From assembly GCA_021822495.1 (NCBI GenBank), contig JAKAQO010000001.1, positions 514,808-578,807 on the forward strand: a stretch of 64,000 bases of DNA, read 5' to 3'. The notes beneath the pieces are model-generated. The model did not search any database. It was not told where the DNA came from and worked only from the letters and a program-made list of their open reading frames with translations. The position numbers were made by a program, and so were the translations under genes. Source of the stretch: a bacterium. GTDB taxonomy: Bacteria; Elusimicrobiota; Elusimicrobia; UBA1565; UBA9628. Below, piece by piece: positions 4,826 through 51,037 of the stretch; the first letter of the stretch is position 1, and every line of letters begins with the position of its first letter.

Positions 4826-6673
4826 ATGGCAAAAATTATTGGAATTGATTTAGGAACCTCAAACACGGCCGCGGCCGTGACCGAAGGCGGAAAAGCCACC
4901 ATCATTCCATCTGCGGAAGGCACCTCCGTCGGAGGAAAAGCGTTTCCGTCCTATGTCGCTTTCGCGAAAGACGGTCAACTCTTGATTGGAGAACCCGCCC
5001 GCAGGCAAGCGGTGGCCAACCCCGAAGGAACCTTCATGGCCTTTAAGAGGAAAATGGGAACCGATCACAAATACAAGGCTCCGGACGGAAAGGAATACAC
5101 CCCGCAGCAGCTGTCGGCCTTTCTTTTACAAAAGGTAAAAAGAGACGCGGAGGCGTTTCTCGGCGACAAGGTTGAAAAAGCCGTCATCACCGTTCCGGCT
5201 TATTTTAACGACAACCAAAGACAAGCGACGAAAGACGCCGGAACGATCGCGGGTCTTGAAGTTGTTCGCATCATCAACGAGCCGACGGCGGCTTGTCTTG
5301 CTTATGGAGTCGACAAAAAAGGAAAAGACGAAAAAATCATGGTGTTTGACCTGGGAGGCGGAACGCTGGATGTCACCATCATGGACTTCGGCGGAGGCGT
5401 TTTTGAAGTTGTTTCAACCTCAGGCGACACCCAGCTTGGCGGAACCGACATGGACAATGCCCTCATCGAATACATTGCCGGGGAATTTAAGAAAGAAACC
5501 GGCTTTGACTTCAGAAAAGATCCAATGGCCATTCAAAGAGTTCGGGAAGCGGCCGAAAAAGCGAAGATTGAACTGTCGAGCACATTTGAAACTGACATCA
5601 ACCTCCCTTATTTAACCGCCGTGGACAATACGCCGAAGCATTTGGCGATGAAACTGACGCGCTCAAAGCTTGAGTCCTTGGTTGACCCCATCGTTAAGCG
5701 CTGCAAACAATCCGTTGACCAAGCCCTAAACGACGGGAAACTCAAGACTTCAGACATCACCCGCATTATTTTGGTTGGAGGACCGACCCGAATGCCCATA
5801 GTCCAAAAATTCGTCGAGGACTATGTCGGCAGAAAAGTCGAACATGGAGTAGACCCGATGGAATGCGTGGCGACCGGCGCCGCGGTCCAAGCCGCGGTTT
5901 TAACCGGAGATGTCAAAGACGTTCTTCTTTTGGACGTCACGCCCTTAACCTTAGGCATCGAGACCTTGGGCGGCGTCATGACGCCTTTAATCGAAAGAAA
6001 CACGACAATCCCGGTAGAGAAATCCCAGGTTTTTTCGACCGCCGCCGACAATCAGCCGGCCGTCACCGTCCATGTTCTTCAAGGCGAACGCCCCAAGGCG
6101 GACAATAACGTTTCCCTGGGGAAATTCGACTTGGACGGAATTCCGCCGGCCCCCAGAGGAGTTCCGCAAATTAAAGTCAGCTTCTCAATCGACGCTAACG
6201 GCATCTTAAACGTCAAGGCCGAGGACTTGGGGACGAAAAAGGCGCATCACATCACGATCTCGGCCCCAAACAAACTCTCGAAAGAGGATATCGAAAAATT
6301 CGTCAAGCAAGCCGAGCAATTCTCCGATGAAGACAAAAAATTCAAGGAGAAGGTGCAGGCCAAAAACGAAGCGGACTCCGTTCTTTTCTCGGCGGAAAAA
6401 GCTTTGAAAGAGCACGGAGACAAGGTCTCTCAAGAAGAAAGAACGGCCATTGACCGCGCAATATCGGAACTCAAGGAAGCTCTCAAATCCGAGGACTTAG
6501 ACAGAATCAACAAGGCCAAAGACGAAACGCTCAAGGTTTCGCATAAACTGGCGGAGGAGATTTACAAGTCCGAAGCCTCCCAAAAAGCCGCGCCCTCGGA
6601 GCCCTCTGATTCCAAAAACTCGGATAAGAAAGATGAGGTTGTCGATGCCGAAGTCGTTGAGGACAAAAAATAA
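4826..6673 (+). CDS. dnaK: Hsp70 chaperone DnaK
   Basis: I start at the ATG at 4826 ([13 protein letters not shown]), which has the ribosome site AAGGAGA just upstream. A longer open frame from 4730 would run through grpE. The 615-residue product has the nucleotide-binding domain with the phosphate-1 loop DLGTSN (8-13), [12 protein letters not shown] and [10 protein letters not shown], the linker [15 protein letters not shown], and the substrate-binding domain and lid. The C-terminal tail is charged and ends [13 protein letters not shown]. It works with DnaJ and GrpE on unfolded proteins. Codon use and length are ordinary. Confidence 0.98.
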
Positions 6674-6691
6674 ATATTAACGGAAAAAGTC

Positions 6692-7843
6692 ATGGCTGAA
6701 GATTATTACGAAACTCTCGGAGTCGCCCGAAACGCATCAGAAGCGGAAATTAAATCCGCCTTCAGAAAGTTGGCGATGAAATACCACCCGGATAAAAACC
6801 CGGGAAGCAAAGAATCCGAGGAAAAGTTTCGGAAAATCAATGCCGCCTATGAGACCCTGTCTAGCCCCGAGAAACGCTCGCTTTATGACCGCTTTGGAGA
6901 GGCGGGCGTTTCCGGGGCGCCGGGAGGGGGTCACGCCGGCAATCCTTTCGGAGGCGCCGGGGTCGACGTCAACGAAGTTTTTGGCGATCTCTTTGAGAAT
7001 CTATTTAGTAGTGGTGGAGGTTCGGGAAAACAAAGAAGACGCGGCGGAGATTTAAAATACGAAGTTCACATTGACTTAGAAGAAGCCTTCTCCGGAACTC
7101 AGATTCCCCTTGAGTTCGAGCGCGCGGAGAATTGCGCCTCCTGTCGCGGCACCGGCGCCAAGGGCGGAGCGTCTGGAACCAGAAAATGCTCCCAATGCCG
7201 GGGGTCGGGATATGTTCAATTTTCACAGGGATTTTTTTCGATGCGCCAACCCTGTCCCGCCTGCGGCGGAGAAGGACAAGTCATCGAGCATCCCTGCCCT
7301 GAATGCCGCGGTTCCGGTAAAATCCACAAGCACGCAAACCTTAAAGTTAAAATTCCTCCCGGAATTTATGACGGGGCCACGCTTCGGATCAGCGGGGAAG
7401 GAGAAGCCGGAAACCGAGGCTCAGACCCAGGAGACCTTTACGTTTTAGTCCGCGTCAAACCCGACCCTAGATTTGAGCGAAATGAGGATGACCTCACCAC
7501 CGAACGCGTCTTGGGAATCGCCGAAGCCTCCCTTGGAACAACAGCAGAAGTCGCCACTATAGACGGCGAAAAAACAAAAATTAAAATCCCCGCCGGAACC
7601 CAACACGGAGCAACCTTTCGAGTTAGGGAAAAAGGAATGCCCAAACTCCACGGCCGAGGCCGCGGGGACTTGCTCGTTAAAATTAAAATCGAGATTCCGC
7701 GCCATTTAAGCGCAAGGCAACAAGAGCTTTTAGAAGAGTTTCAAAAGACTGAGAATTCCCAGGACGGTTCCTCCGGTTCAAAAGGACCGGATTCCGGAGA
7801 AGGTTCAAGCGGCGGAATCTTTAAAGGTTTTTTCAAGCATTAA
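6692..7843 (+). CDS. dnaJ: Hsp40 co-chaperone DnaJ
   Basis: The 383-residue protein is a complete type I J-protein. The J domain has HPD at residues 32-34. A Gly/Phe-rich linker follows (about 72-115). Four CxxCxGxG zinc-binding repeats are visible ([32 protein letters not shown]), then the C-terminal substrate-binding domains. It delivers clients to DnaK and stimulates its ATPase. The gene is 18 bases after dnaK. The C-terminal 35 residues are Ser/Gly-rich, an ordinary variable tail. Confidence 0.97.
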
Positions 7844-7846
7844 AAA

Positions 7847-8644
7847 ATGCCGCAATTTCGGCTCGGAAATAAAATTTCTCCCGAGGATAAAACCTTCACT
7901 CTCGTCGGCCCTGATGCCGCCCACGCCTTAAGAGTTCTTCGCTATAAAATTGGAGATAAAATCCTGTGTTTAGATCCTGCGGGGACAAAAATTGAAGGCC
8001 GCATTGAACAAGTCGCGCGTGATTCGATTTTAGGCTCCATTCTCAAGCGCTGGCCGTTTAAAACCCCAGGGCTCAAGATGAATCTTTATTCCGCCCTGCT
8101 CAAAAACCAGGCCTGGGAAGAAGTTCTTGAAAAAGGAACCGAAATCGGGGTCAATCAGTTTATTCCCGTTTTAACCGCTTACAGCGCGGTGGCCCTAAAG
8201 AAAGAAGATTATCCTCGAAAACTGTCCCGCTGGGAAAAAATTATCGCGGGCGCGGTCAAACAATCGGAAAGAACCATCGCCCCCTCTATTTCCGCTCCAA
8301 AGACGCTTCAAGAAATATTAAAAGAAATCCCCAACGCCCATGCGTCTTTATTTGCCTGGGAAGAGGCGCGGGAAAACAGAAAAAACGCCTTTTTAATTTC
8401 TGAAATTTTCAAAGCGATCAACCCGAACGAAACTTTTTTGGTCAATATTTGGATTGGCCCCGAAGGGGGATTTTCGGATGAAGAAGCCCAGCTTCTTCTC
8501 AAAAAAGACGTTCGCCCCATTTCTCTCGGAGAAAATATTCTAAGGGCCGAAACGGCGGCCCTGGTTTCCTGCGCGCTCATCCAATACGAATACCAAAACG
8601 CCTTATCGAAGAACGCCTTCAGCCAGAGACACGACATTTCTTAA
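7847..8644 (+). CDS. rsmE: 16S rRNA m3U1498 methyltransferase RsmE
   Basis: The 265-residue product matches the RsmE family: an N-terminal PUA-like domain (HALRVLRYKIGDKIL) and a C-terminal SPOUT knot with the SAM-binding motifs IGPEGGFSDEEA and LGENILRAETAAL. It methylates N3 of U1498 in 16S rRNA. It starts three bases after dnaJ and is the last gene of the heat-shock operon, a common arrangement in several phyla. Its last 42 bases overlap the 3' end of the convergent folD gene, so no intergenic terminator exists there. Confidence 0.93.
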   Translation: MPQFRLGNKISPEDKTFTLVGPDAAHALRVLRYKIGDKILCLDPAGTKIEGRIEQVARDSILGSILKRWPFKTPGLKMNLYSALLKNQAWEEVLEKGTEIGVNQFIPVLTAYSAVALKKEDYPRKLSRWEKIIAGAVKQSERTIAPSISAPKTLQEILKEIPNAHASLFAWEEARENRKNAFLISEIFKAINPNETFLVNIWIGPEGGFSDEEAQLLLKKDVRPISLGENILRAETAALVSCALIQYEYQNALSKNAFSQRHDIS

Positions 8645-9475
8645 AAGGAGAGCCGTCGTCACAGGTCCAACGCCCCCCGGAACCGGGGTAATCCACAAGG
8701 CTTGTTTAAGCGCTCCTTTAAAATCGACATCTCCCGTTATTTTCCCATGGAGATGACTCGTTCCGGCGTCGATGACCACGGCTCCTTTTTTAATCCAGGA
8801 GCCGGCAATCAAGTTCGGATGTCCAACGGCGGAAATCACAAGATCGGCGTTTTGAACTTCTTGCTTGAGATTTCTGGTTTTTGAATGGGCCACGGTGACC
8901 GTCATATCCATCATCATCAAAAGGTGCGCGGTCGGTTTCCCCACGACATTAGACCGGCCGATGACTAAAGCCCTCTTACCTTTGAGCGGAGAGCCCAGTT
9001 TTTTCGCGATCTCAGCGCACGCCAGAGCGGTCGCAGGAACGATCGTATTTTTTCTTTTTATCTCCTCAAGACCCCGAGCCTTAAAAAGCCGCCCGAAATG
9101 AAATGGGTTTAAGCCTTCCGCATCTTTAATGGAACCCACAAGAGCCTCCAATTTTTCAAAGTCCACTTTTTTGGGGAAAGGCTTGACCAAAATCAGCGCA
9201 TGAATTTTTTTATCCTTGAGCGCTTGCTCAACAGTCTCAATATAGGCCTTTTCTCCGCTGAGCGGGCTCATGGGAAAAACGGCGCAGGAAACCCCTGTTT
9301 TCATAGAAGCCCTGATTTTAGCGCGCACATAGGATTCGGCCGCGGGAATTCCTTTCCCATAAATCACCGCAAGACCGGGGACAATTCCCCGTTCCTTGAG
9401 TTTGCGGACGCGAGACCTAAGATTCTTATAAATTTCTTCCGCGAAAGCGGTTCCATCAAACACCTTTACTGACAT
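8603..9475 (-). CDS. folD: FolD-family methylenetetrahydrofolate dehydrogenase/cyclohydrolase, divergent
   Basis: The 290-residue product has the FolD layout: the YVxxK signature with Tyr49 and Lys53 (SYVRAKIRAS), a Rossmann domain with VIGRSNVVGKPTAHLL, and the C-terminal PGGVGPVTTALL. FolD interconverts 5,10-methylene- and 10-formyl-tetrahydrofolate with NADP. One key region is unusual: the family motif VQLPLP, whose Gln helps catalysis, reads VKPFP here (Lys98, one residue shorter), and DVDG reads DAEG. Dehydrogenase or cyclohydrolase activity could therefore be altered. The start overlaps the end of the upstream reductase gene by 20 bases, and the 3' end overlaps rsmE by 42 bases. Confidence 0.85.
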   Translation of the reverse strand: MSVKVFDGTAFAEEIYKNLRSRVRKLKERGIVPGLAVIYGKGIPAAESYVRAKIRASMKTGVSCAVFPMSPLSGEKAYIETVEQALKDKKIHALILVKPFPKKVDFEKLEALVGSIKDAEGLNPFHFGRLFKARGLEEIKRKNTIVPATALACAEIAKKLGSPLKGKRALVIGRSNVVGKPTAHLLMMMDMTVTVAHSKTRNLKQEVQNADLVISAVGHPNLIAGSWIKKGAVVIDAGTSHLHGKITGDVDFKGALKQALWITPVPGGVGPVTTALLLRNVVSLAEGVLR

Positions 9476-40654: not shown

Positions 40655-40719
40655 CAATAGCGCTTGCTTATAGACGATGATCAATCTCACTCCCTCAACC
40701 AAAACTCCGGAGCTTGCGC

Positions 40720-43074
40720 GTGCCCCTTAACGAAGCCGATACTCGCGCCAAGCTCATTGATCCCGCCATCCACTCCAAAGGTTGGACCGAGGATTTAATC
40801 AGCCGCGAGGAAACTGCCGGTGCCATCGAAGTCATTGATGGAAAACCCCGCAAGCGCTCTACTGGCCGCGTTGATTACGTCCTCCGTTTCAAGGCGGATT
40901 CCGAAGCCCAACCTGTTGCCGTCGCCTTGATGGAGGCCAAGGCCGAGAACCTACCGCCAACCGATGGTCTTGAGCAAGTCAAATTCTATGCCGCATGCAA
41001 CCGCTTCAATGTTTGTTTCTGTTTTTCCAGCAACGGCCATATGTTTGTGGAATACGACCGCCTCACGGGACTCACGACCAATCCCGCTCCGCTCAGCAAT
41101 TTCCCAACACCAGGAAATCTTCGCCGGCGCTATGAAGAGGCTATGGGTTTTAGCTTGGAAGACGCGGCGGCCAAGCCGCTTTTGTCGCGATACGCGGGCG
41201 GCGAAGGAGGGCGCCGCTACTATCAAGACGCCTCAATCCGCGCGGTGCTGGAAAAAATCGCCCGCTGTGAAAAAGAGAAAAAACCAAGGCGCGCGCTTCT
41301 ATCCCTGGCGACGGGAGCGGGCAAAACTTTCATCGCGGTCAATTTGCTTAAACGCATCGCTGACGCGGGACAGTTGCATCGGGCGCTTTTTGTTTGCGAT
41401 CGCGATGAGTTGCGCAGCCAGGGTTCGGCGGCGTTTCAAAATATTTTCGGCTCGGATGCCGCTTCCGTCTCCGCGGGAAAACCCCAGAAAAACGCCCGCG
41501 TTCTCATCGCGACTTATCAAACATTGGATGTGGACAGCGAAAACGCCGATGCTAATTTTTTAACCCAAAACTATCCCGAGAATTATTTTAGCCATGTCAT
41601 TATTGATGAGTGCCACCGTTCGGCCTGGGGCAAATGGTCACAGGTTCTCCTGCGAAACCCGGAAGCCGTACAAATCGGCCTGACCGCCACGCCGCGCAAG
41701 CTGAATTTATCCTCAACCCAGAAAGAAGCCTCTGAGGACGCCAAAATCACGGCCGACAACGTCAAGCACTTTGGAGAACCGGTCTACGAATATGACCTCG
41801 GACAAGGCATCGAGGACGGTTATTTGGCCGCTTGCGACATCCAGAAAGGGCGCGTCAATCTCGACGCCACGGGCGTTGATATTGAAGACATCCTCGCGCG
41901 CCATCCCATTGACTCCGTGACCGGCCGGGCGTTGGACGAAACGCAAGTGAGGGAACATTACGAAAAAACCAGCTTCGAGCGTCAAATCTTGTTGCCGGAC
42001 CGCGTCGTGGCCATGAGCGCGGATCTTTTCAAATATCTGTTGGACTCCGGAGGACCCGAGCAGAAAACCATCATATTTTGCGCCACAGATCGCCATGCCG
42101 ATGATGTGGCGGCTCAGATGAACAATCTTTACGCCCAGTGGAGCAGGGAACGTGGCCAAGAACTTTTGCATCCCTACGCTTTTAAATGCACGGCTTCGGT
42201 GGGGGGCGGGGATTATCTGGCGGATTTGCGGGGAGCCTCGCGCTCTCATTTCATCGCGACGACGGTCGATCTTTTGAGCACCGGAGTCGATGTTCCCGTG
42301 GTCAGAAACATCGTTTTTTTCAAATACGTCAACTCCCCGATTTCTTTTTACCAAATGATCGGCCGCGGAACGCGCATTGACGTGGAGGCGAACAAATTAA
42401 TGTTTACGGTTTATGACTACACAAATGCGACTAGGCTGTTCAATCAGGATTTCATCACTCGCCTTAAGCCTTCCGGCCAAGGCCGGGCGGAACCGCGCCC
42501 CAAGGAGACGACCCTGCAAGTCGAGGGTTTTGACGTGCGCGTCACCGAAGCAGGGCGATATATCCTGGCTTTGATAAACGGAAAAACCCAGCCGGTCACG
42601 GTCGAGGAATACAAGGCGATTTTAGCGAAAAATCTGACTCAAGAGGCTCCGACCCTGGAAGCCTTCCGCGCGCATTGGAGCTCTCCCAAGGAGCGCCGGG
42701 ATTTGCTCGGGCATTTGCCCAACTCAGGGCGTTCCGCCGCGTTGATCCGCGGCCTTGAACACATGGAGGCTTATGATCTCTACGACGTTTTAGGCGAATT
42801 AGGCTACGGCATGGCGCCCAAGACCCGCTCAGACCGCGTCGAGGCTTTTGGCTATAAGCACAAGAATTGGCTTTCGGCTCTTCCCGTGGAAACAGCGGCA
42901 ACTCTCAGGGCTGTCGCGAATCAGTTTGTTTCAGGCGGAACCGAGGGGCTGGAGAGCCCTTCTATTTTTGATACCCCTGAAGTCCGGAAATCCGGAGGCC
43001 TTGCCGCCCTCAAGGCCCTGGGAAACCCTCCCGACATCTTGCGCGAGGCCAAGATTCGGATTTTCGCGGCATAA
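40720..43074 (+). CDS. hsdR: Type I restriction enzyme, R subunit (EcoEI-like)
   Basis: I choose the GTG at 40720, seven bases after GGAG; a TTG at 40714 is too close to that site. The 784-residue product has the N-terminal nuclease motif (Asp52, then Glu72-x-Lys74 in ALMEAKAE), the helicase core with Walker A ATGAGKTF (about 198-205), DECH in VIIDECHRS (about 296-299), TATPRK, and helicase C with STGVDVPVVRN and QMIGRGTRID. It translocates DNA and cleaves it when the MTase complex meets unmodified sites. hsdS is 3.2 kb and hsdM 6.4 kb downstream, an unusual separation. Confidence 0.95.
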   Translation: MPLNEADTRAKLIDPAIHSKGWTEDLISREETAGAIEVIDGKPRKRSTGRVDYVLRFKADSEAQPVAVALMEAKAENLPPTDGLEQVKFYAACNRFNVCFCFSSNGHMFVEYDRLTGLTTNPAPLSNFPTPGNLRRRYEEAMGFSLEDAAAKPLLSRYAGGEGGRRYYQDASIRAVLEKIARCEKEKKPRRALLSLATGAGKTFIAVNLLKRIADAGQLHRALFVCDRDELRSQGSAAFQNIFGSDAASVSAGKPQKNARVLIATYQTLDVDSENADANFLTQNYPENYFSHVIIDECHRSAWGKWSQVLLRNPEAVQIGLTATPRKLNLSSTQKEASEDAKITADNVKHFGEPVYEYDLGQGIEDGYLAACDIQKGRVNLDATGVDIEDILARHPIDSVTGRALDETQVREHYEKTSFERQILLPDRVVAMSADLFKYLLDSGGPEQKTIIFCATDRHADDVAAQMNNLYAQWSRERGQELLHPYAFKCTASVGGGDYLADLRGASRSHFIATTVDLLSTGVDVPVVRNIVFFKYVNSPISFYQMIGRGTRIDVEANKLMFTVYDYTNATRLFNQDFITRLKPSGQGRAEPRPKETTLQVEGFDVRVTEAGRYILALINGKTQPVTVEEYKAILAKNLTQEAPTLEAFRAHWSSPKERRDLLGHLPNSGRSAALIRGLEHMEAYDLYDVLGELGYGMAPKTRSDRVEAFGYKHKNWLSALPVETAATLRAVANQFVSGGTEGLESPSIFDTPEVRKSGGLAALKALGNPPDILREAKIRIFAA

Positions 43075-43133
43075 TCGCGGCGCGCGGCTATTGTTTTAAA
43101 ATAAACTGAAATTCCAGAAAATAAAACATTCTA

Positions 43134-43175
43134 TTGAGAGATTATCTCAAATAACTCTTTTTTCCTTTGTATAAT
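43134..43175 (+). promoter_or_regulatory. Inverted repeat and -10 box upstream of the 43182 gene
   Basis: TTGAGA, five bases, TCTCAA (43134-43150) forms a small palindrome. A perfect TATAAT (43170-43175) ends six bases before the ATG at 43182, implying a leaderless transcript; the palindrome covers the -35 region. Confidence 0.5.
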
Positions 43176-43181
43176 TATCTT

Positions 43182-43490
43182 ATGGCGCACGAGAATACAC
43201 CAAAGGAAAAGAATGCCGCTTATTTCCATCGGGAGGCATCAAAGTTTCTGGCAGATCCTTTATTAAAGAATAAATTTGTCGTTATTCAATCCGAAAAAAT
43301 TCAAGCGAGTTTCGACACCTTTTCCGCGGCGCTCGAATTTGCGGTTTCAAAATTTCCCCCTGAAGAATTCATCATTCGGCAGGTAATCAACGAGAAAGAA
43401 CAAATCAATTTCCTCATCGGCCGAGATATATTGTCCCATTGGAGTCTGACTTGGCACGGCCCAACCTCTACCGTGCTTATATCCGATTAA
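43182..43490 (+). CDS. Small hybrid protein: DUF5678-like front, retropepsin-like tail
   Basis: I start at ATG 43182 (MAHENTPKEK) instead of the TTG at 43167, which overlaps the TATAAT box. The 102-residue product begins with FVVIQSEKIQASFDTFSAAL..FPPEEFIIRQV, a pattern of short DUF5678-type proteins, and ends with LIGRDILSHWSLTWHGP, which looks like the last strand and helix of a clan AA (retropepsin-like) aspartic protease. The catalytic Asp-Thr/Ser-Gly part is absent. I infer an in-frame deletion that fused two adjacent genes, so this is probably a remnant. Confidence 0.5.
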   Translation: MAHENTPKEKNAAYFHREASKFLADPLLKNKFVVIQSEKIQASFDTFSAALEFAVSKFPPEEFIIRQVINEKEQINFLIGRDILSHWSLTWHGPTSTVLISD

Positions 43491-43497
43491 GGAAACG

Positions 43498-43638
43498 GTG
43501 AACCCATGGCGGGCTCAACCGGAAAAAGAAAAAGGCAATGCGGAAAAGGAAATCGAGTACGAATCTGTTTTTTACAGAACCCCCGATTACTCCGTCAGGG
43601 ATTACGGTGACATTCAAAAAAATCGGAAGGCTTCCTGA
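43498..43638 (+). CDS. Short ORF, possible antitoxin remnant
   Basis: A 46-codon frame opens at a GTG with the ribosome site AAGGA a few bases before it. It encodes an acidic, tyrosine-rich peptide (EYESVFYRTPDYSVRDYG) and its 3' end overlaps the start of the truncated toxin-like frame, as antitoxin genes often do. No family is recognised; it could be chance coding in a decayed stretch. Confidence 0.3.
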   Translation: MNPWRAQPEKEKGNAEKEIEYESVFYRTPDYSVRDYGDIQKNRKAS

Positions 43639-43708
43639 TTTTGAAAAAGATTTTAAGAGGCTTTTAAAAAGGTTTAGGACTCTTGATGAGGATTTTGAGG
43701 CTGTATAA
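43607..43708 (+). pseudogene. Truncated RelE/ParE-like toxin remnant
   Basis: A GTG-initiated frame encodes 33 residues (MTFKKIGRLPDFEKDFKRL, then LKRFRTLDEDFEAV) ended by TAA. This resembles the opening of a RelE/ParE-family toxin group that I recall starting FPxFEKDxKxLxKKxRTLEED, but the remaining 80 or so residues with the catalytic core are missing. The reading is from memory of the family, so moderate confidence only. Confidence 0.42.
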
Positions 43709-43778
43709 AAAAGAAAGGCCCTAGAGACAACAATCGTGACAATATCATTTAAACTTATGGTGGGAGGCACAAACAATC

Positions 43779-44486
43779 ATGGCGAGAGAAATTATTTCTG
43801 AAATCAGGCAATCAGTATTTGCAGTAATAATCGAGCGTGTTAATCCACAACAAGGAGAGCAGCGGGCGCAGGTTGCCGGTACGGGTTTCTTTGTATCGAA
43901 CGATGGATATTTTGTCACTGCGGATCACGTTATAAATCTCGATCATGGACGGCCTGCCGGAAGATTGCGTGAGATTAAGGACAAAATTATGATCGCACAA
44001 ATTCAGCCGGATGGGCGTAGCGTTTCGGTTGTTGGCCCAATGCAAGTTGTCGTTGAAAACAGGACGAAAGATTACGCTATTCTTAAAGCTCCAGATACGC
44101 TTCCAAAAGTTCAAAAGTATTTGGACATTGATTTAACTGCTCGATTTGAAGGCGAAGAGGTTTCAATTTGTGGCTACCCCTTAGCATCTTCGAATCAAGA
44201 TCCCCAGAGTGGACAAATTCTTCTTGATATTTATATTCGAGTATCCGCTGGCATTCTTATGTGCCAGCGTTTAGATAATCTAACACAGATTTTAGAGGTC
44301 GATTTTCCGATCTTGCCGGGAAATAGCGGCGGACCGTTAATAGCAACTACTTCGCGACGAGTTCTTGGACTTGCTACGGCGACAAATACGGTACCAGGAC
44401 CCAATGGTACGCCTATGGGAATGTTTGGTATTTGCACAGATATTCGTGAATTGCAGGAAGATTTGAGGAATAAAGGAATAATTTAA
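43779..44486 (+). CDS. Cytoplasmic trypsin-like serine protease
   Basis: The 235-residue product has a complete S1-type triad: His50 (FVTADHVI), Asp98 (TKDYAILKA) and Ser183 (LPGNSGGPL). There is no signal peptide, membrane segment or PDZ domain, so unlike HtrA/DegP it should act in the cytoplasm. A ribosome site GGGAGG precedes the ATG. It lies between hsdR and the SIR2 gene (92-base gap). Trypsin-like proteases are known effector or processing enzymes in bacterial conflict systems; here it may process or be activated by the SIR2 protein. The gene is A/T-rich compared with hsdR and hsdM. Confidence 0.9.
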   Translation: MAREIISEIRQSVFAVIIERVNPQQGEQRAQVAGTGFFVSNDGYFVTADHVINLDHGRPAGRLREIKDKIMIAQIQPDGRSVSVVGPMQVVVENRTKDYAILKAPDTLPKVQKYLDIDLTARFEGEEVSICGYPLASSNQDPQSGQILLDIYIRVSAGILMCQRLDNLTQILEVDFPILPGNSGGPLIATTSRRVLGLATATNTVPGPNGTPMGMFGICTDIRELQEDLRNKGII

Positions 44487-44578
44487 AATATTGCTATATG
44501 GTTCTCAGTGCAAAGAGCTATGGTCGTTCGAGAAAACTCGTCAGATAGACTCGGCAGAAAATTTTTGAAAGTTAATTT

Positions 44579-46306
44579 ATGGCAAATGTAACCCTCCCAA
44601 ACAGAAGTCCACAACAAGAAGGAAAAATTATTTTCTTCTTGGGCGCGGGCGCTTCAATACCTGCCAACGTACCAGATACCATGGGACTAGTCCAAGGATT
44701 TGAGAAGGAGGTTGAATCCAAGCAAGAAACCAAAGAATTAGACTCAGACTTAAAAAAATTGCTTAAAGTTCTTGGCAAAGAAAATCATCCCGTTGATATT
44801 GAAGCTCTCTTGGAGGCATTGGACTTAACCGAGCCGGATGATCACCCCGCGCCCGAAGCATTTCGAGCCATTGAAAAACAAAAGGAATTAACGGACATTA
44901 ATGTAAAAAAACTTAGGGACGCATTGAGAAAATATATTGTTCGGCAAGTGATTGTTAGAGAATCCAATATCGTCTACCTCAATCCACTTTTAGGGTTCAT
45001 AACAGGGTCAAGTCCGCTGGATATTTTTTCGGTCAACTATGACACCTGCATCGAGCTGTTCTGCCACACTAGAAGAATTCCCTTTACGGATGGATTTGGA
45101 GTCAATTGGCGGCCGGAAGAGTTCGAACGCAAAGATGTCAAGGTCCGGCTTTTCAAACTTCACGGCTCTGTTCTTTGGCACGAAACAACAAAAAAAGATT
45201 ACCTTCGCATTCCGGTTCTGCCTCAACCTGATCAAACGTTGACCTTGTTTACCCATGATGAGGCGCGGCCTCTTATTCTTTATCCCGCCAGAAAATGGGA
45301 TTACTCCGCGCCGCTTCTCCACAATCTTAATCAACTCCGGGAGAGATTGCTCGATCCATCCGTCCAGAACGTTATTGTCGTTGGATATTCTTTTCGAGAC
45401 GAACATATAAAGAGATTGTTCTGGGATGCTTTGCGGGCAAATGAAAATCTTATTCTGACGCTTATTGATCCCCAAGCGTGGAAAATTTACGACAACAAGC
45501 TTCGATTTTATAATTCCGACTCAACCGTTCCGACAGGGCTGGATGAACGCGTCGTGTGTCTTCCTTATAAATTTGAAGCGATTTTCCCAAGACTAAAAAG
45601 TCACCAGTATATCGATAACATCGGCTTCGCTTTTCAAGAAAAGCAACGACAAGACGAAGCGACGATAAACGGTTACCACACAGAATGGAATAAGGTCCTC
45701 GAATCATCCTTAAAATCGGAGTTCTTGGGCCTCTGCCGCTACGCGCTCAGCAAACTCGACTGTTCAAGACTGAACTCCGATAAAATCCTGGAGTATTATT
45801 TCAATCTTCGAGTATTGGAAGAGATTCATGGATGTCTGCTCGTGAATACGGATTTCCGCGATCGAACAGCGCAAGTATTTAAGCGGATTCAAGCTGAAAT
45901 TTCAGGCCCACATCCGAGCCTTAATTTTGATTATCGCCCACAAAAAAATTCTCAAGGCGGCGTTATTAGCGCAAGCTATATTTCAGATTCAGAGGTCTTG
46001 CGAATTGTTCAAGATGCCCTTAAAAAAGCGGAAGATATGCGCGGGCTTGGTGTTGTTCCGGAACAGCTAAAAATCATCGGACAATTACAATCTATCGAAA
46101 AACAATTAACCTTGCTTCAACAATCAGGAATTGCTGATTATCTTGCGAAAACAAAAGGCTCTTATCGTGACGCTGCATTCTATTTAAAAATCGACAATTT
46201 CCACAAAAAATACACAAATATCGCTCAAAATGATGTGAAAGAATTAATCCTTGAGTTCAACCAAGTTGAACAATGTATATTTTGTAGTTTGCTTGGATTT
46301 CAATGA
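44579..46306 (+). CDS. SIR2-domain NADase-like protein with unknown C-terminal domain
   Basis: Of 575 residues, about 1-290 form a SIR2-like domain: FFLGAGASIPAN (22-26 GAGAS), FSVNYDT with Asn153 and Asp155, KLHGSVLWH with His195, and NVIVVGYSFRDEHIKRLFW (near 265-280). The Asn and His are the NAD-cleaving residues in SIR2 defence proteins such as ThsA and DSR-type proteins. The C-terminal 285 residues are helical and unrecognised, probably the sensor or oligomerisation part. Its stop overlaps the hsdS start by four bases (ATGA), tying it to the restriction system. I infer an abortive-infection effector. Confidence 0.85.
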   Translation: MANVTLPNRSPQQEGKIIFFLGAGASIPANVPDTMGLVQGFEKEVESKQETKELDSDLKKLLKVLGKENHPVDIEALLEALDLTEPDDHPAPEAFRAIEKQKELTDINVKKLRDALRKYIVRQVIVRESNIVYLNPLLGFITGSSPLDIFSVNYDTCIELFCHTRRIPFTDGFGVNWRPEEFERKDVKVRLFKLHGSVLWHETTKKDYLRIPVLPQPDQTLTLFTHDEARPLILYPARKWDYSAPLLHNLNQLRERLLDPSVQNVIVVGYSFRDEHIKRLFWDALRANENLILTLIDPQAWKIYDNKLRFYNSDSTVPTGLDERVVCLPYKFEAIFPRLKSHQYIDNIGFAFQEKQRQDEATINGYHTEWNKVLESSLKSEFLGLCRYALSKLDCSRLNSDKILEYYFNLRVLEEIHGCLLVNTDFRDRTAQVFKRIQAEISGPHPSLNFDYRPQKNSQGGVISASYISDSEVLRIVQDALKKAEDMRGLGVVPEQLKIIGQLQSIEKQLTLLQQSGIADYLAKTKGSYRDAAFYLKIDNFHKKYTNIAQNDVKELILEFNQVEQCIFCSLLGFQ

Positions 46307-47517
46307 TGAAAGCAGGAATTCAAACAACAGAAAAAATCCCCTCGTTGCCTTCAGGATGGAGGTTGGTTAGGCTGGATAGAGTCTGCGAGATCATTGCAGG
46401 GCAATCTCCTCCTGGTGATACTTATCGGAATTCGCCTGTTGGGCTTCCGTTCTTTCAGGGGAAAGCTGATTTCGGGCTACGCCACCCAATTGCACGCGTG
46501 TGGTGTACGGCACCGACTAAAATTGCGAAGCCTGGCGATATATTGATTTCAGTTCGTGCACCCGTAGGGCCGACAAATGTGGCAGATGCAGAATGTTGCA
46601 TCGGCCGAGGACTTGCCGCTATACGTCCAGGCAACGATGCAAGTGGAGATTTCGTTCTTGCCGCACTACGTTATAAAGAACGTGAACTTGTCTGTCTTGC
46701 CAATGGAAGCACTTTTACCGCTATAACCCGCGAACATCTTGCGTCTTTCCAACTGCCCCTCCCACCCCTTCCCGAGCAAAAGCGCATCGTGGCCAAGCTA
46801 AGCGAGCAGATGGCGGCGATTGAAAAAGCGCGGGCGGCGGCCGAGGCGCAGCTTGCGGCGGCGAAAGCTTTGCCCGCGGCATTTTTAAGGGAAATATTTC
46901 CCAAGCCCGGTTCAAAGTTGCCCTCGGGGTGGCGGTGGATGTCATTGGAAAATATTTGCGATGATCAAATTGGTAAGAAAGATCCGCGCTTAACCCCGCT
47001 ACATCCGTTTTTCTATGTAGATATCTCAAGCATTGATAATGAGAATAAATGTGTTGCGGACGCAAAAACCTTTTTAGGTAATAAGGCTCCCAGCCGAGCC
47101 CGACAAGTAATCCGGGAAAACGACGTTGTTGTCTCGACTACGCGGCCAAATCTTAATGCCGTTGCTATCGTGTCAAAAAGACTTGATGGGGAAATTTGCA
47201 GTACTGGTTTCTGTGTTTTGCGGCCAACGCCGAGCGTGCACCCAAAATTATTATTTGCTTATGTTCAGTCTCCATATTTCGTTCAAACTCTCAGCGAGTT
47301 AGTGAGAGGAGCGCTGTATCCCGCCGTAACCGATAAGCATGTCCGCGCGCAGTTGATTCCCCTTCCACCCCTTTCCGACCAAAAACATATTGTCGACAAG
47401 ATTAATGAAAAGCTAATGATAGCGAAACGCGTGCTAATCACAATAGAAGAAGTAAATGGCGAGATTGGACAAATACCTGCCGCGCTTCTACGAAAGGCAT
47501 TTATGCGTAATAAGTAA
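46303..47517 (+). CDS. hsdS: Type I restriction-modification specificity subunit
   Basis: The 404-residue product has two target-recognition domains, each followed by a conserved helical spacer: IPSLPSGWRLVRLDRVCEI...PLPPLPEQKRIVAKLSEQ and KLPSGWRWMSLENIC...PLPPLSDQKHIVDKINEK. It sets the bipartite DNA target of the complex with HsdM and HsdR. The first spacer (about 46741-46935) is strikingly G+C-rich and Ala-rich (KARAAAEAQLAAAKALPAAF) compared with the A/T-rich recognition domains, consistent with domain swapping. It is translationally coupled to the SIR2 gene and separated from hsdM by 2 kb. Confidence 0.93.
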   Translation: MMKAGIQTTEKIPSLPSGWRLVRLDRVCEIIAGQSPPGDTYRNSPVGLPFFQGKADFGLRHPIARVWCTAPTKIAKPGDILISVRAPVGPTNVADAECCIGRGLAAIRPGNDASGDFVLAALRYKERELVCLANGSTFTAITREHLASFQLPLPPLPEQKRIVAKLSEQMAAIEKARAAAEAQLAAAKALPAAFLREIFPKPGSKLPSGWRWMSLENICDDQIGKKDPRLTPLHPFFYVDISSIDNENKCVADAKTFLGNKAPSRARQVIRENDVVVSTTRPNLNAVAIVSKRLDGEICSTGFCVLRPTPSVHPKLLFAYVQSPYFVQTLSELVRGALYPAVTDKHVRAQLIPLPPLSDQKHIVDKINEKLMIAKRVLITIEEVNGEIGQIPAALLRKAFMRNK

Positions 47518-47566
47518 TCAGCCTTGAAATCTTATATGCCACAGCACGATTAAAGGAGATGAAAAT

Positions 47567-48661
47567 ATGAATAGCGAACGACTTAACGCACTTGCACTCA
47601 TCATTCAAACAGAAATGAATTCTGCAAATATATTGGGGAAACTCCAGAATGTGCTTGCTGGCCTCCAGAATATAGTCAACCAGCCTCAGGTGCCTCAACA
47701 CCAGCAAAACCTTTCCAAGTCTCTCAAAGAATTATACCCGTCATTGGAAAATGCAAAAAGCGAAAGTTTAAGTCCTGCTTGGAAAGAAATGTTAAAAGAA
47801 ATTGGTGGAGCGGACTTACTTGGAATAAATTTAAGACATCGAATCGAGGGGATATTCTCCAGGAACCAGATAACCAATGCCATTGCGCTTGAGGAAATGC
47901 GCATGATCCACAATCAATTCTCTGACTTTAAGACAGGAATAGACCAAGTAGTAACTGGGCTCAGCAAACTCCGTATCGGCGTCGATAAACTGGAACCCGG
48001 AGAATGTGAGTTGGGCTTATTCATACCAAGAACGGCCGTGGAAGATAATTTTGGCGTGTTCGCTGAAGAGTTGAGCGAGTTTAGTTTTATCTTCAGTACA
48101 TTTTCGGAAGTAATTACTGGTAAAAAGGATGATCTAAAAATCAAAACTTTATCATCAAGTGAGTTGTTAATTTTCTTGAAACCCGCAATAAAAGTGGCAG
48201 CCGAGATCGCTACAACCGTAGCAGCTCTAATTTCTGCTTACAAGAATCTACTAGACATCAAAAAACATCGAGAAGGGCTGAAGGCGCAGAATTTGCCTGA
48301 AGAAAATCTCACCGGTATTGATGAATATATAAATTCTGTTATAGATAATGCGGTTGAGAATATTATGGATAATATTATGCAGAAATGGGGACAGAATATT
48401 TCTGATCAAAATCGCCGTAATGAAATGAAAAATGGTATCCGACTATCTCTTAAGAAGATTGTGTCGCGAATTGATCGCGGCTATCATATTGAAGTGCGGG
48501 TTGAACCATTATCCGAATCCAAGACAGACTCCGCTCCGACAGAAAATAACGAAACAAAAAATTACATTCAGACAATCCAGGAAGCGGTAAAAAATCTGGA
48601 GTATATAAAACTGGTTGGCGCCCCAGTCCTCAAGCTTCCAGAAAAAATAAAGGGCAATTGA
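47567..48661 (+). CDS. Unknown 364-residue helical protein between hsdS and vapB
   Basis: The start has a strong ribosome site (AAAGGAG). The product is mostly alpha-helical with predicted coiled coil (about 1-60 and 230-300), and one weakly hydrophobic stretch near residues 203-227 (LLIFLKPAIKVAAEIATTVA) that may be an amphipathic or membrane helix. It has no enzyme motif I recognise. It follows hsdS by 49 bases, shares the A/T-rich composition of the protease-SIR2-hsdS block and probably travels with it. A structural or sensor role in the defence module is possible but unproven. Confidence 0.6.
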   Translation: MNSERLNALALIIQTEMNSANILGKLQNVLAGLQNIVNQPQVPQHQQNLSKSLKELYPSLENAKSESLSPAWKEMLKEIGGADLLGINLRHRIEGIFSRNQITNAIALEEMRMIHNQFSDFKTGIDQVVTGLSKLRIGVDKLEPGECELGLFIPRTAVEDNFGVFAEELSEFSFIFSTFSEVITGKKDDLKIKTLSSSELLIFLKPAIKVAAEIATTVAALISAYKNLLDIKKHREGLKAQNLPEENLTGIDEYINSVIDNAVENIMDNIMQKWGQNISDQNRRNEMKNGIRLSLKKIVSRIDRGYHIEVRVEPLSESKTDSAPTENNETKNYIQTIQEAVKNLEYIKLVGAPVLKLPEKIKGN

Positions 48662-48709: not shown

Positions 48710-48817
48710 TGCCGTGCGTTGAGCGAGAGGACGCGGGCGGCGGTCGCGGAGCAGTTAGACGATATTCGCGCGTTGCCCGCAAGGCTTTTAGACGCCGCGT
48801 TTTCCGGGAAGTTATAG
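48710..48817 (+). pseudogene. C-terminal remnant of an hsdS gene
   Basis: The frame ending in TAG at 48815-48817 reads ALSERTRAAVAEQLDD, IRALPARLLDAAFSGKL: exactly the form of the last helix and tail of HsdS subunits (compare ALPAAFLREIF and IPAALLRKAF in the intact hsdS). It has no start and is closed upstream by a stop at 48707. It sits directly before the vapB-vapC-hsdM unit. It implies that an earlier hsdS stood next to this unit and was replaced. Confidence 0.7.
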
Positions 48818-48895: not shown

Positions 48896-49120
48896 ATGGA
48901 AACAACTTTGACGGAAAGAGGCCAAACCGCCGTGCCGGCGCGCATCCGCAGGGATTTTCATCTCAAGTCGGGGCAAAAACTGGAATGGAGCGAGGCCGGA
49001 GGCGTCATTTGCATCCTGCCCGTCCCCAAGGACCCCATCAAGGCTTTCCGGGGCTCTTCCAAAACCAAGCGTCTGGGCTCGGCGCTTTTGAAATATAGGC
49101 GTCAGGATGCCCGCCGCTAA
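48896..49120 (+). CDS. vapB: AbrB/MazE-type antitoxin (VapB)
   Basis: The 74-residue product has a SpoVT/AbrB swapped-hairpin DNA-binding domain (TLTERGQTAVPARIRRDFHLKSGQKLEW) and a basic C-terminal tail (KTKRLGSALLKYRRQDARR) that would bind the toxin. It overlaps the toxin gene by 14 bases. VapB proteins neutralise VapC and, with it, repress their own promoter; because hsdM follows in the same unit, that loop may also set methylase expression. Confidence 0.85.
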   Translation: METTLTERGQTAVPARIRRDFHLKSGQKLEWSEAGGVICILPVPKDPIKAFRGSSKTKRLGSALLKYRRQDARR

Positions 49121-49526
49121 GACTTGGGCGCTGGACACCTCGGCTCTTTTCTGCCTCAAGGAAAACGAGCCGGGCGCGGACGCGGTGGAGAGGATTCTTC
49201 GCGAAGGCGGCCCTCACGGACATGTGTTTATTTCCTTTATCTCCTTGATGGAGTATTACTACATTTTAAGCCAGGAAGAGGGAGAAGACGCCGCACGGCA
49301 CGGATATCTGGAACTCAAGCAACTTCCCCTGCGGGTCATGGACAACGACGAAGAATTGGGAATAACAGCGGCGCGCATTAAAGCGACCTCAAGGCTCTCT
49401 GTTGCGGACGCTTGGGTGGCCGCGACCGCAAAGCGTTTGGGAGCCGTACTCATCCACAAGGACCCCGAGTTTGAGCCGCTCAAGGGGCAAATCGCTCTCT
49501 ACCCCCTGCCGTACAAATCCCGATGA
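49107..49526 (+). CDS. vapC: PIN-domain ribonuclease toxin (VapC)
   Basis: The 139-residue product is a PIN domain with the acidic residues expected for metal binding: Asp10 (ALDTSALF), Glu in SLMEYYY, Asp in SVADAWVAATA and Asp in IHKDPEF. VapC toxins cut tRNA or rRNA when freed from VapB. Its stop overlaps the hsdM start by four bases (ATGA), so methyltransferase and toxin are translationally coupled. The gene composition matches hsdM rather than the upstream A/T-rich block. Confidence 0.88.
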   Translation: MPAAKTWALDTSALFCLKENEPGADAVERILREGGPHGHVFISFISLMEYYYILSQEEGEDAARHGYLELKQLPLRVMDNDEELGITAARIKATSRLSVADAWVAATAKRLGAVLIHKDPEFEPLKGQIALYPLPYKSR

Positions 49527-51037
49527 GTCCCGGAGTCAAGCGTCATCCGACCCCCCAGTCCTTAAACGGCGCAATCAAATCCATTTGCGACATCATGCGG
49601 CGTTCCAACTGCGCGGGGGCGCTGCAATACGTGCCGGAGTTGACCTGGATTTTGTTTCTGCGCATTTTAGATGAACGAGAGGCGAAAGAAGCCGAGCGCG
49701 CGGAAGCCGTTGGCGCGGATTTTTCTCCCGCGCTTAAGAGCCCCTACCGCTGGCGGGATTGGGCGGCGCCCGAGGGCGCAACCCGCAAAAAGCTTCAAAA
49801 CGGCAATATGGGCGCGGTCTTTTCTTTCGTCCACGCGGATCTTTTGCCCCATCTGCGGGGCTTAAAAAACAAGCCGGGCGCCACGGCGCGGCAAAAGGTC
49901 TTAAGCGAGATTTTCTCCGGCATCGAGAAAACCCGCATCGACACGGAGAAAAATTTTCTCGATATCCTCGACAAGGTTCATGAAATCAGCGCCGAAACCG
50001 TGGACCCAACGCATGTTTTCACCGTCTCCCAGGTCTATGAGAGCCTTCTCCTCAAAATGGGCGAGAAAGGCAACGACGGCGGGCAATTTTTCACGCCGCG
50101 AGAAATCATCCGCGCCGTGGTTAAGGTGATCGATCCGAAAATTGGAGAAACGGTTTATGATCCCGGCTGCGGCACCGGAGGCTTTTTGGCCCAGGCCTAT
50201 GAGCATATGGCCGGCCCTGAAAACGCGAACATCAAATCCCCGGATATGCTTGAAGCCCTGAAGCTTAGGACTTTTTACGGGCGCGAAAAAGACAACGCGA
50301 TTTATCCCATTGCTCTTGCCAATCTCGTTCTTCATGGGATTGACGAGCCGCATCTCTGGCATGGAAACACTTTGACCGGAGCCGAGGCCTATGGCGGCCT
50401 TTTTACCAATGCCCCCGCGCTTTATGACGTCGTCTTGATGAACCCGCCCTTTGGCGGCAAGGAAGGAAAGGAAGCGCAAACCCATTTCGCTTATAAAACA
50501 GGCTCGACCCAGGCGCTGTTTTTGCAGCATGTCTTGTCCCGCTTAAAGCCTGGCGGCCGCTGCGGACTGGTCTTGGATGAAGGAGTTCTCTTTAAGACCA
50601 ATGAGACGGCGTTTGTCCAGACCAAGCGCAAGTTGCTTGATGACTGCGATCTGTGGTGCATCGTAAGTCTTCCGAGCGGAATCTTTACCGCCGCGGGCGC
50701 GGGAGTCAAGACCAATCTTCTGTTTTTTACCAAAGGAAAACCCACGCAAAAGATCTGGTATTACGATTTCTCGGACATCAAAGTTGGAAAGAGAACTCCC
50801 TTCACGCTCGACAAGTTCTCGGAATTTTTCAAACTCCTGCCCAAACGCGAGGACAGCGAACGCAGCTGGACAGTGACGAGAAAGCAAATCGAGGATAGGG
50901 GTTTGGACCTTAAGGCCGTCAACCCCAACGCCAAGAATACCGAGGATACGCGCACGCCCAAGGAGTTGATTGACCTCATCGAGGTTAAGGGTCAGGAAAT
51001 GGCGGAGGCATTAGCCAGGCTCCGCGCATCCCTCTAA
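49523..51037 (+). CDS. hsdM: Type I restriction-modification DNA methyltransferase subunit
   Basis: The 504-residue product has the HsdM N-terminal helical domain (about 10-160), then the N6-adenine methyltransferase core with GQFFTPREII (188-197), SAM motif DPGCGTGGFL (213-222) and catalytic NPPF (307-310, VLMNPPFGG). It methylates adenine at sites chosen by HsdS and forms the restriction complex with HsdR. It overlaps vapC by four bases and lies in the vapB-promoted unit. A terminator follows. Confidence 0.95.
   Translation: MSPGVKRHPTPQSLNGAIKSICDIMRRSNCAGALQYVPELTWILFLRILDEREAKEAERAEAVGADFSPALKSPYRWRDWAAPEGATRKKLQNGNMGAVFSFVHADLLPHLRGLKNKPGATARQKVLSEIFSGIEKTRIDTEKNFLDILDKVHEISAETVDPTHVFTVSQVYESLLLKMGEKGNDGGQFFTPREIIRAVVKVIDPKIGETVYDPGCGTGGFLAQAYEHMAGPENANIKSPDMLEALKLRTFYGREKDNAIYPIALANLVLHGIDEPHLWHGNTLTGAEAYGGLFTNAPALYDVVLMNPPFGGKEGKEAQTHFAYKTGSTQALFLQHVLSRLKPGGRCGLVLDEGVLFKTNETAFVQTKRKLLDDCDLWCIVSLPSGIFTAAGAGVKTNLLFFTKGKPTQKIWYYDFSDIKVGKRTPFTLDKFSEFFKLLPKREDSERSWTVTRKQIEDRGLDLKAVNPNAKNTEDTRTPKELIDLIEVKGQEMAEALARLRASL

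What the first reader, a model, noticed from the sequence alone, without database searches (positions are those of the whole stretch)
43779..46306. Trypsin-like protease and SIR2 protein embedded inside a split type I R-M locus
Between hsdR and hsdS lie a cytoplasmic serine protease with intact triad (His50/Asp98/Ser183) and a SIR2-domain protein with intact NAD-cleaving residues (Asn153, His195) and a 285-residue unknown C-terminal half. SIR2 domains are established NAD-depleting effectors (ThsA, DSR-type, Avs and short-Argonaute partners), and trypsin-like proteases are known in conflict systems, but this pairing nested in a restriction operon is not one I know. I infer a layered system: restriction first, NAD depletion as back-up, with the protease releasing or processing the effector.
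Basis: partly seen in the sequence, partly recalled or inferred. Interest (0 to 1): 0.85.

Follow-up and report, generated by a model that had tools for sequence, protein, structure and literature searches.

The report
SIR2 NADase inside restriction locus
A bacterial restriction locus carries an inserted gene for a predicted NAD-destroying SIR2 enzyme, tied to the DNA-recognition gene and probably a fallback suicide defence of an already described kind; the protease beside it is real, but it is found next to SIR2 in no other genome examined.

Summary
Between hsdR and hsdS lie a trypsin-fold protease (43779-44486; His50/Asp98/Ser183) and a SIR2 protein (44579-46306; Asn153/His195) whose core folds like the SIR2 NADase of SIR2-HerA, plus a divergent helical C-terminus of about 230 residues. 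The coupling that recurs is SIR2 with hsdS, not SIR2 with the protease. SIR2 overlaps hsdS by 4 bp here and in two related loci (Elusimicrobia, Aminicenantes) built on an unrelated type I R-M backbone. No protease adjoins SIR2 in the Elusimicrobia locus, in any solo relative, or in the annotated plasmid SIR2 loci I opened. The Aminicenantes locus carries a different protease, the subtilase of a nested known system (ietAS). A cargo-free version of this R-M (hsdM 84% identical) exists in the same family, and the cargo is AT-rich, so it is an insertion. SIR2 genes inside type I R-M loci, proposed as fallback toxins, were published in 2012; PrrC is the proven model. Best reading: a new variant of that kind, a SIR2 NADase probably restrained by the Hsd complex and released when restriction fails. 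Protease activation is possible (trypsin-activated pro-nucleases are known) but has no comparative support here.

The parts
40714..43074 (+). hsdR, type I restriction subunit (786 aa, EcoEI-like)
   Evidence: Pfam ResIII 5.7e-32, EcoEI_R_C 2.1e-6; PADLOC REase_I 2.5e-80
43167..43490 (+). orf107, small protein of unknown function in the AT-rich insert
   Evidence: PHROG_34696 4e-7 over 32 residues only; no Pfam family over cut-off
43779..44486 (+). trypsin-fold serine protease, 235 aa, triad H50/D98/S183, no obvious signal peptide
   Evidence: Pfam Trypsin_2 4.2e-16; triad read from the translation; nearest PADLOC models RT-Protease_XI and PDC-M35A
44579..46306 (+). SIR2 protein, 575 aa: SIR2 core about 12-345, helical C-terminal region about 346-575; N153/H195
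   Evidence: Pfam SIR2_2, PADLOC Aga_SIR2 1.9e-34; AlphaFold core resembles PsSIR2 8w9l, Z 24.5, rmsd 3.0 over 294 residues
46303..47517 (+). hsdS, two target-recognition halves; start overlaps SIR2 stop by 4 bp
   Evidence: Pfam Methylase_S 1e-24, two stretches; junction CAATGATG
47567..48661 (+). u364, orphan, predicted mostly helical protein in the second AT-rich segment
   Evidence: no family over cut-off; no plasmid match; one weak match in 150 genomes of the phylum
48719..48817 (+). remnant of the former hsdS 3' end (LSERTRAAVAEQLDDIRALPARLLDAAFSGKL*)
   Evidence: aligns with the G277 HsdS C-terminus, score 53 against a shuffle maximum of 42; 23-bp repeat with the hsdS linker
48896..49120 (+). 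AbrB/MazE-type antitoxin
   Evidence: TIGR01439 6e-7
49107..49526 (+). PIN-domain (VapC-like) toxin, overlaps hsdM by 4 bp
   Evidence: Pfam PIN 1.2e-18
49523..51037 (+). hsdM, type I N6-adenine methyltransferase subunit
   Evidence: Pfam N6_Mtase 5.6e-55; PADLOC MTase_I 3.4e-188

Best explanation
A SIR2-family NADase gene has been inserted into a type I R-M locus and is co-translated with hsdS. [quoted passage not shown] Shown here: intact SIR2 fold and active-site residues, translational overlap with hsdS recurring on two unrelated type I backbones, and insertion into a locus whose cargo-free version exists in a relative. Inferred: NADase activity, silencing by Hsd, and the trigger. The adjacent protease is treated as an optional accessory of unknown target.
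For: SIR2 core matches the NADase SIR2 of SIR2-HerA by fold (Z 20-24) and by sequence profile (1.5e-15); catalytic positions are invariant in the 10 aligned family members. SIR2 lies immediately upstream of hsdS with the same 8-bp junction CAATGATG in the window, in G249/L013 (Elusimicrobia) and in L060 (Aminicenantes). The last two have a different R-M backbone: window and G249 HsdR show no significant similarity and HsdM is 26% over 280 aa. Between G249 and L060, SIR2 (91%) is better conserved than hsdM (81%), hsdR (83%) or hsdS (67%), so it is kept under constraint. In L060 SIR2 also overlaps hsdM by 4 bp. A Shewanella plasmid has hsdM-hsdS-SIR2 with another SIR2 branch. G277 carries the same R-M (hsdM 84%) with 322 bp between hsdR and hsdS and no cargo. 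Literature: SIR2 linked to type I R-M as a proposed fallback toxin (PMC3506569); PrrC silenced by EcoprrI and released by Stp (PMC2610378).
Against: Several relatives of this SIR2 (Methanophagales, Planctomycetota, Halothermothrix) stand alone without R-M, so the protein may not need Hsd proteins. The three hsdS-coupled cases are only two independent ones, because G249 and L060 share one system. The C-terminus shows no detectable homology between window and relatives, so no shared Hsd-binding part is visible. A 4-bp ATGA overlap is common in operons. No activity is demonstrated.
Confidence: 0.5

Rival explanations
1. Independent cargo: a self-sufficient SIR2 abortive-infection gene and an unrelated protease gene were deposited in a defence hotspot formed by the R-M locus, with no functional link to restriction or to each other.
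For: Most relatives of the SIR2 are solo genes. The insert is AT-rich (GC3 34-45% against 62-66% for hsdR and hsdM) and also holds orf107; a second insert holds u364, and a vapBC pair lies next to hsdM. In L060 a complete known system, ietAS, is nested in the R-M locus.
Against: Position of SIR2 directly before hsdS with a 4-bp overlap recurs on an unrelated R-M backbone, which random deposition would not readily give.
Confidence: 0.32
2. Protease-gated NADase: the trypsin-fold protease senses infection or R-M failure and cleaves the SIR2 protein, releasing its NADase activity.
For: The two genes are adjacent, same strand, 92 bp apart, in one AT-rich insert with similar composition. Trypsin-activated pro-effectors are proven in Hachiman and AVAST, where the effector is an MBL nuclease (PMC12799240). 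The nearest PADLOC models of this protease are defence proteases.
Against: The pair occurs only here: no trypsin next to SIR2 in any relative, and G249 has the SIR2-hsdS arrangement with no protease. No window-specific inserted loop stands out in the SIR2 core alignment. In the proven trypsin systems the protease is fused to another defence protein; this one is not.
Confidence: 0.13
3. The protease and SIR2 protein are not defensive: a housekeeping quality-control protease and a sirtuin-like protein acting on ordinary substrates, carried in the R-M locus by chance.
For: The protease resembles HtrA/DegP proteases weakly.
Against: The SIR2 core is of the anti-phage SIR2_2 class, closer to SIR2-HerA than to deacetylases (Z 24.5 against about 15), and plasmid relatives sit with HerA, Argonaute or R-M genes.
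Confidence: 0.05

Closest known systems
SIR2 proteins linked to type I R-M systems (Makarova et al. 2012, PMC3506569)
   Same: SIR2-family gene within a type I R-M operon, proposed as a toxin released when immunity fails
   Different: That paper does not mention a protease (0 occurrences); the direct overlap with hsdS and the trypsin gene are specific to what is described here
PrrC/EcoprrI
   Same: Effector gene embedded in a type I R-M locus, working as a second line of defence
   Different: PrrC is an ABC-ATPase anticodon nuclease; this is a SIR2 protein and no anti-restriction trigger is known
SIR2-HerA (Nezha)
   Same: Closest solved fold of the SIR2 core (8w9l, 8sub, 8j4u)
   Different: No HerA gene in the locus; extra C-terminal region of about 230 residues
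SPARSA (SIR2 with short Argonaute)
   Same: Best PADLOC profile (Aga_SIR2 class II, 1.9e-34)
   Different: No Argonaute among the genes around the locus
Nuclease-protease pairs of Hachiman/AVAST/Lamassu (PMC12799240)
   Same: Trypsin-like protease encoded next to a potential toxic effector inside a defence locus
   Different: There the effector is an MBL nuclease and the protease is fused to a defence protein; here a stand-alone protease sits next to SIR2
rlo genes (restriction-linked ORFs) of Campylobacter type I loci
   Same: Variable cargo genes inserted in hsd loci (described in PMC2610378)
   Different: Other gene families (RloC is a PrrC homologue)

Membership tests
Anti-phage SIR2 (SIR2_2) NADase family | SIR2_2 fold with GAGxS motif and catalytic Asn and His | tested here: met
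   Pfam 6.2e-10; fold Z 24.5 to PsSIR2; N153 and H195 invariant in the 10 aligned family members
Anti-phage SIR2 (SIR2_2) NADase family | NAD+ hydrolysis | not testable with these tools
   needs an assay
Type I R-M system | hsdR, hsdM and hsdS all present and open | tested here: met
SIR2 embedded in type I R-M (2012 proposal) | SIR2 gene inside a type I R-M locus | tested here: met
   SIR2 between hsdR and hsdS, overlapping hsdS by 4 bp
PrrC-like R-M-guarding effector | silenced by the Hsd complex and released by anti-restriction factors | not testable with these tools
   only gene order supports it
PrrC-like R-M-guarding effector | recurrent linkage to type I R-M | tested here: inconclusive
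   3 of about 10 family loci are R-M linked, from 2 independent systems
SIR2-HerA (Nezha) | HerA ATPase gene downstream of SIR2 | tested here: not met
   the gene downstream is hsdS
SPARSA | short Argonaute gene adjacent to SIR2 | tested here: not met
   the neighbours from hsdR to hsdM include no Argonaute
Dsr1/Dsr2 | large protein of about 1000-1270 aa with sensor C-terminus | tested here: not met
   575 aa; NCBIfam Dsr1 19.8 bits against cut-off 1400
Trypsin-MBL nuclease pair | MBL-fold nuclease gene upstream of a protease fused to a defence protein | tested here: not met
   no MBL domain in neighbours; protease is 235 aa, single domain
Named protease-SIR2 system | recurrent co-occurrence of both genes | tested here: not met
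   found only in this genome among those sampled

The most novel reading that the evidence does not exclude
A three-tier system in which the type I R-M complex restrains a cytoplasmic trypsin-fold protease and a SIR2 pro-NADase, and failure of restriction lets the protease cut the SIR2 C-terminus and release NAD depletion: proteolytic activation of an NADase, not yet described in the papers I could search.
Probability: 0.08. Interest if true: 0.75.

Novelty: new variant of a known kind. Interest (0 to 1): 0.4.

Why it matters
It adds a concrete, testable case to the 2012 proposal that SIR2 toxins inside restriction loci are fallback effectors: the SIR2-hsdS gene pair recurs on unrelated R-M backbones in different phyla and points to HsdS as the partner to test. 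If the protease proved to act on the SIR2 protein, proteolytic activation would extend from pro-nucleases to NADases.

Tried and rejected
Viral contigs with the SIR2 protein and with alignment A1: no confirmed relative. Phage records: one weak SIR2 match. Trypsin against plasmids: two Sinorhizobium serine proteases, no SIR2 in the one context opened. Trypsin in own phylum: mostly longer frames of DegP/HtrA-like size; the one similar-sized stand-alone protease (G041, L044) has no SIR2 or hsd gene beside it. Rejected SIR2-HerA, SPARSA and Dsr membership because defining partners or size are missing. The protease-SIR2 unit was rejected as an established pair because it does not recur. Structure of u364 from a single sequence failed (mean pLDDT 42). 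The SIR2 C-terminus is low confidence and no fold is claimed for it; one search covers only residues 11-345. Promoter and terminator scans were at chance level. Paper searches for trypsin with SIR2 or hsd genes gave nothing on this pair; preprints were not searchable. A first fetch of regions failed on a length limit and was repeated.

Full report
What is there. The window lies on a 779-kb contig of a 2.2-Mb genome; a genome of the same family carries the title Elusimicrobia. The locus reads hsdR (40714-43074), orf107, trypsin-fold protease (43779-44486), SIR2 (44579-46306), hsdS (46303-47517), u364 (47567-48661), an hsdS remnant (48719-48817), AbrB/PIN pair, hsdM (49523-51037). All three R-M subunits are open frames with the expected domains.

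The SIR2 protein. Profile searches place it among anti-phage SIR2 proteins: PADLOC Aga_SIR2 1.9e-34, SIR2 4.1e-28. An AlphaFold model from a 10-sequence alignment has a good core and a poor C-terminus (mean pLDDT 66; mostly 70-92 up to about residue 310, mostly below 55 after about 410). The core aligns with PsSIR2 of SIR2-HerA at Z 24.5, rmsd 3.0 over 294 residues, well above true deacetylases at about Z 15. N153, D155, H195 and the GAGxS motif are invariant across the ten aligned family members. NAD cleavage is therefore likely but not shown. After about residue 380 the window protein has no detectable homology to its relatives, so the C-terminus is the variable part, as expected of a sensor or partner-binding region (inference).

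What recurs. A scan of 84,980 species genomes with the two-sequence alignment A1 (window and G249) found eight relatives, one of them the G249 locus already known. Two relatives besides the window are in type I loci: G249 (Elusimicrobia) has hsdM-SIR2-hsdS-hsdR, and L060 (Aminicenantes) has hsdM-SIR2-hsdS ... hsdR. In all three SIR2 ends in a Gln codon and TGA inside the sequence CAATGATG, the ATGATG being the hsdS start. G249 and L060 are one system in two phyla: SIR2 91%, hsdR 83%, hsdM 81%, hsdS 67% identical. Their R-M backbone differs from the window's: HsdR shows no significant similarity and HsdM 26% over 280 residues. So the SIR2-hsdS coupling is seen on two backbones. The other relatives (Methanotrichaceae, Methanophagales, two Planctomycetota loci, Halothermothrix, and G747 found) are solo as far as the contigs show; L057 ends soon after SIR2, so its context is incomplete. 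A more distant SIR2 branch on a Shewanella plasmid follows hsdM-hsdS directly.

What does not recur. The trypsin gene. In 295 genomes of the phylum most matches are longer frames of DegP/HtrA-like size; 297 genomes of the L060 phylum and 294 of the L059 phylum gave seven matches in longer frames (355-751 aa), none beside a SIR2 gene. The genomes of five relatives hold no stand-alone homologue. Of sixteen SIR2 plasmid regions opened, fifteen are annotated; their partners are HerA-like ATPases, Argonaute, hsdM-hsdS, or an HsdR-N-terminal-domain gene, or none obvious, never a trypsin (the record has no annotation). L060 does contain a protease, but it is the S8 subtilase of an ietAS system, a known defence system nested in that R-M locus. 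These are samples, so a rare second case cannot be excluded.

How the locus was built. In G277 (same family) the same R-M exists with hsdM 84% identical and 322 bp between a degraded hsdR and hsdS, and with no trypsin, SIR2, u364 or vapBC in the locus. The window cargo is AT-rich: orf107, protease, SIR2 and u364 have 40-43% GC and GC3 34-45%, against 54-55% GC and GC3 62-66% for hsdR and hsdM. The fine profile shows two AT-rich blocks, about 43050-46350 and 46950-48600, separated by an R-M-like segment of hsdS (51-61% GC). The second block probably replaced the second half of hsdS and left its old 3' end behind, as suggested by the remnant's alignment score (53, shuffle maximum 42) and a 23-bp repeat shared with the hsdS linker. 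The protease and SIR2 thus share one block but need not have arrived together.

Mechanism. The most economical reading is a fallback effector. PrrC is the experimental model: an anticodon nuclease in a type I locus, silenced by EcoprrI and released by the phage peptide Stp (PMC2610378). Makarova et al. 2012 listed SIR2 proteins linked to type I R-M among predicted toxins acting when immunity fails (PMC3506569). The hsdS overlap fits a SIR2 made in step with the specificity subunit. Steps shown: fold (predicted), active site, coupling, insertion. Steps inferred: NADase activity, silencing by Hsd, trigger. The protease could gate SIR2, as trypsin-fold proteases gate MBL nucleases in Hachiman and AVAST (PMC12799240), but G249 has the SIR2-hsdS unit without it, so it is at most an accessory.

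Verdict. New variant of a known kind, interest 0.4.

Noticed in passing
L103 (G000:C6:12000-31000), 5382-8783: The same genome has a second SIR2 gene (330 aa) directly after a type II R-M pair (N6_N4 methylase and a 383-aa restriction enzyme, PADLOC REase_II 1.3e-154), lying between a glycine-cleavage-like gene cluster and a ligase-like gene.
   Followed up: partly
L060, 9443-12922: A complete ietAS pair (AAA ATPase and S8 subtilase) is nested inside a type I R-M locus that also carries the SIR2-hsdS unit.
   Followed up: partly
window 47567-48661: Orphan 364-aa protein, predicted mostly helical, in the segment that replaced the 3' half of hsdS; no family over cut-off and no convincing relative found.
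   Followed up: partly
window 48896-49526: AbrB/MazE-type antitoxin and PIN toxin pair placed directly before hsdM, the toxin overlapping hsdM by 4 bp; absent from the related G277 locus.
   Followed up: partly
window 43538-43708: A 56-aa open frame upstream of the protease that resembles, by eye, the start of a RelE/ParE-type toxin; no Pfam or NCBIfam match.
   Followed up: partly
L079, L080 and L081 (G190, G277, G262): hsdR of close relatives is decaying: interrupted by stops (G190), internally deleted (G277) or truncated (G262), while the window copy is intact.
   Followed up: no
L096, L097, L098: In the L060 phylum, SIR2 followed by a HerA-like ATPase-sized gene sits beside genes resembling type III or type I R-M, a recurrent nesting of SIR2 systems with R-M; partner genes identified by eye only.
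   Followed up: no
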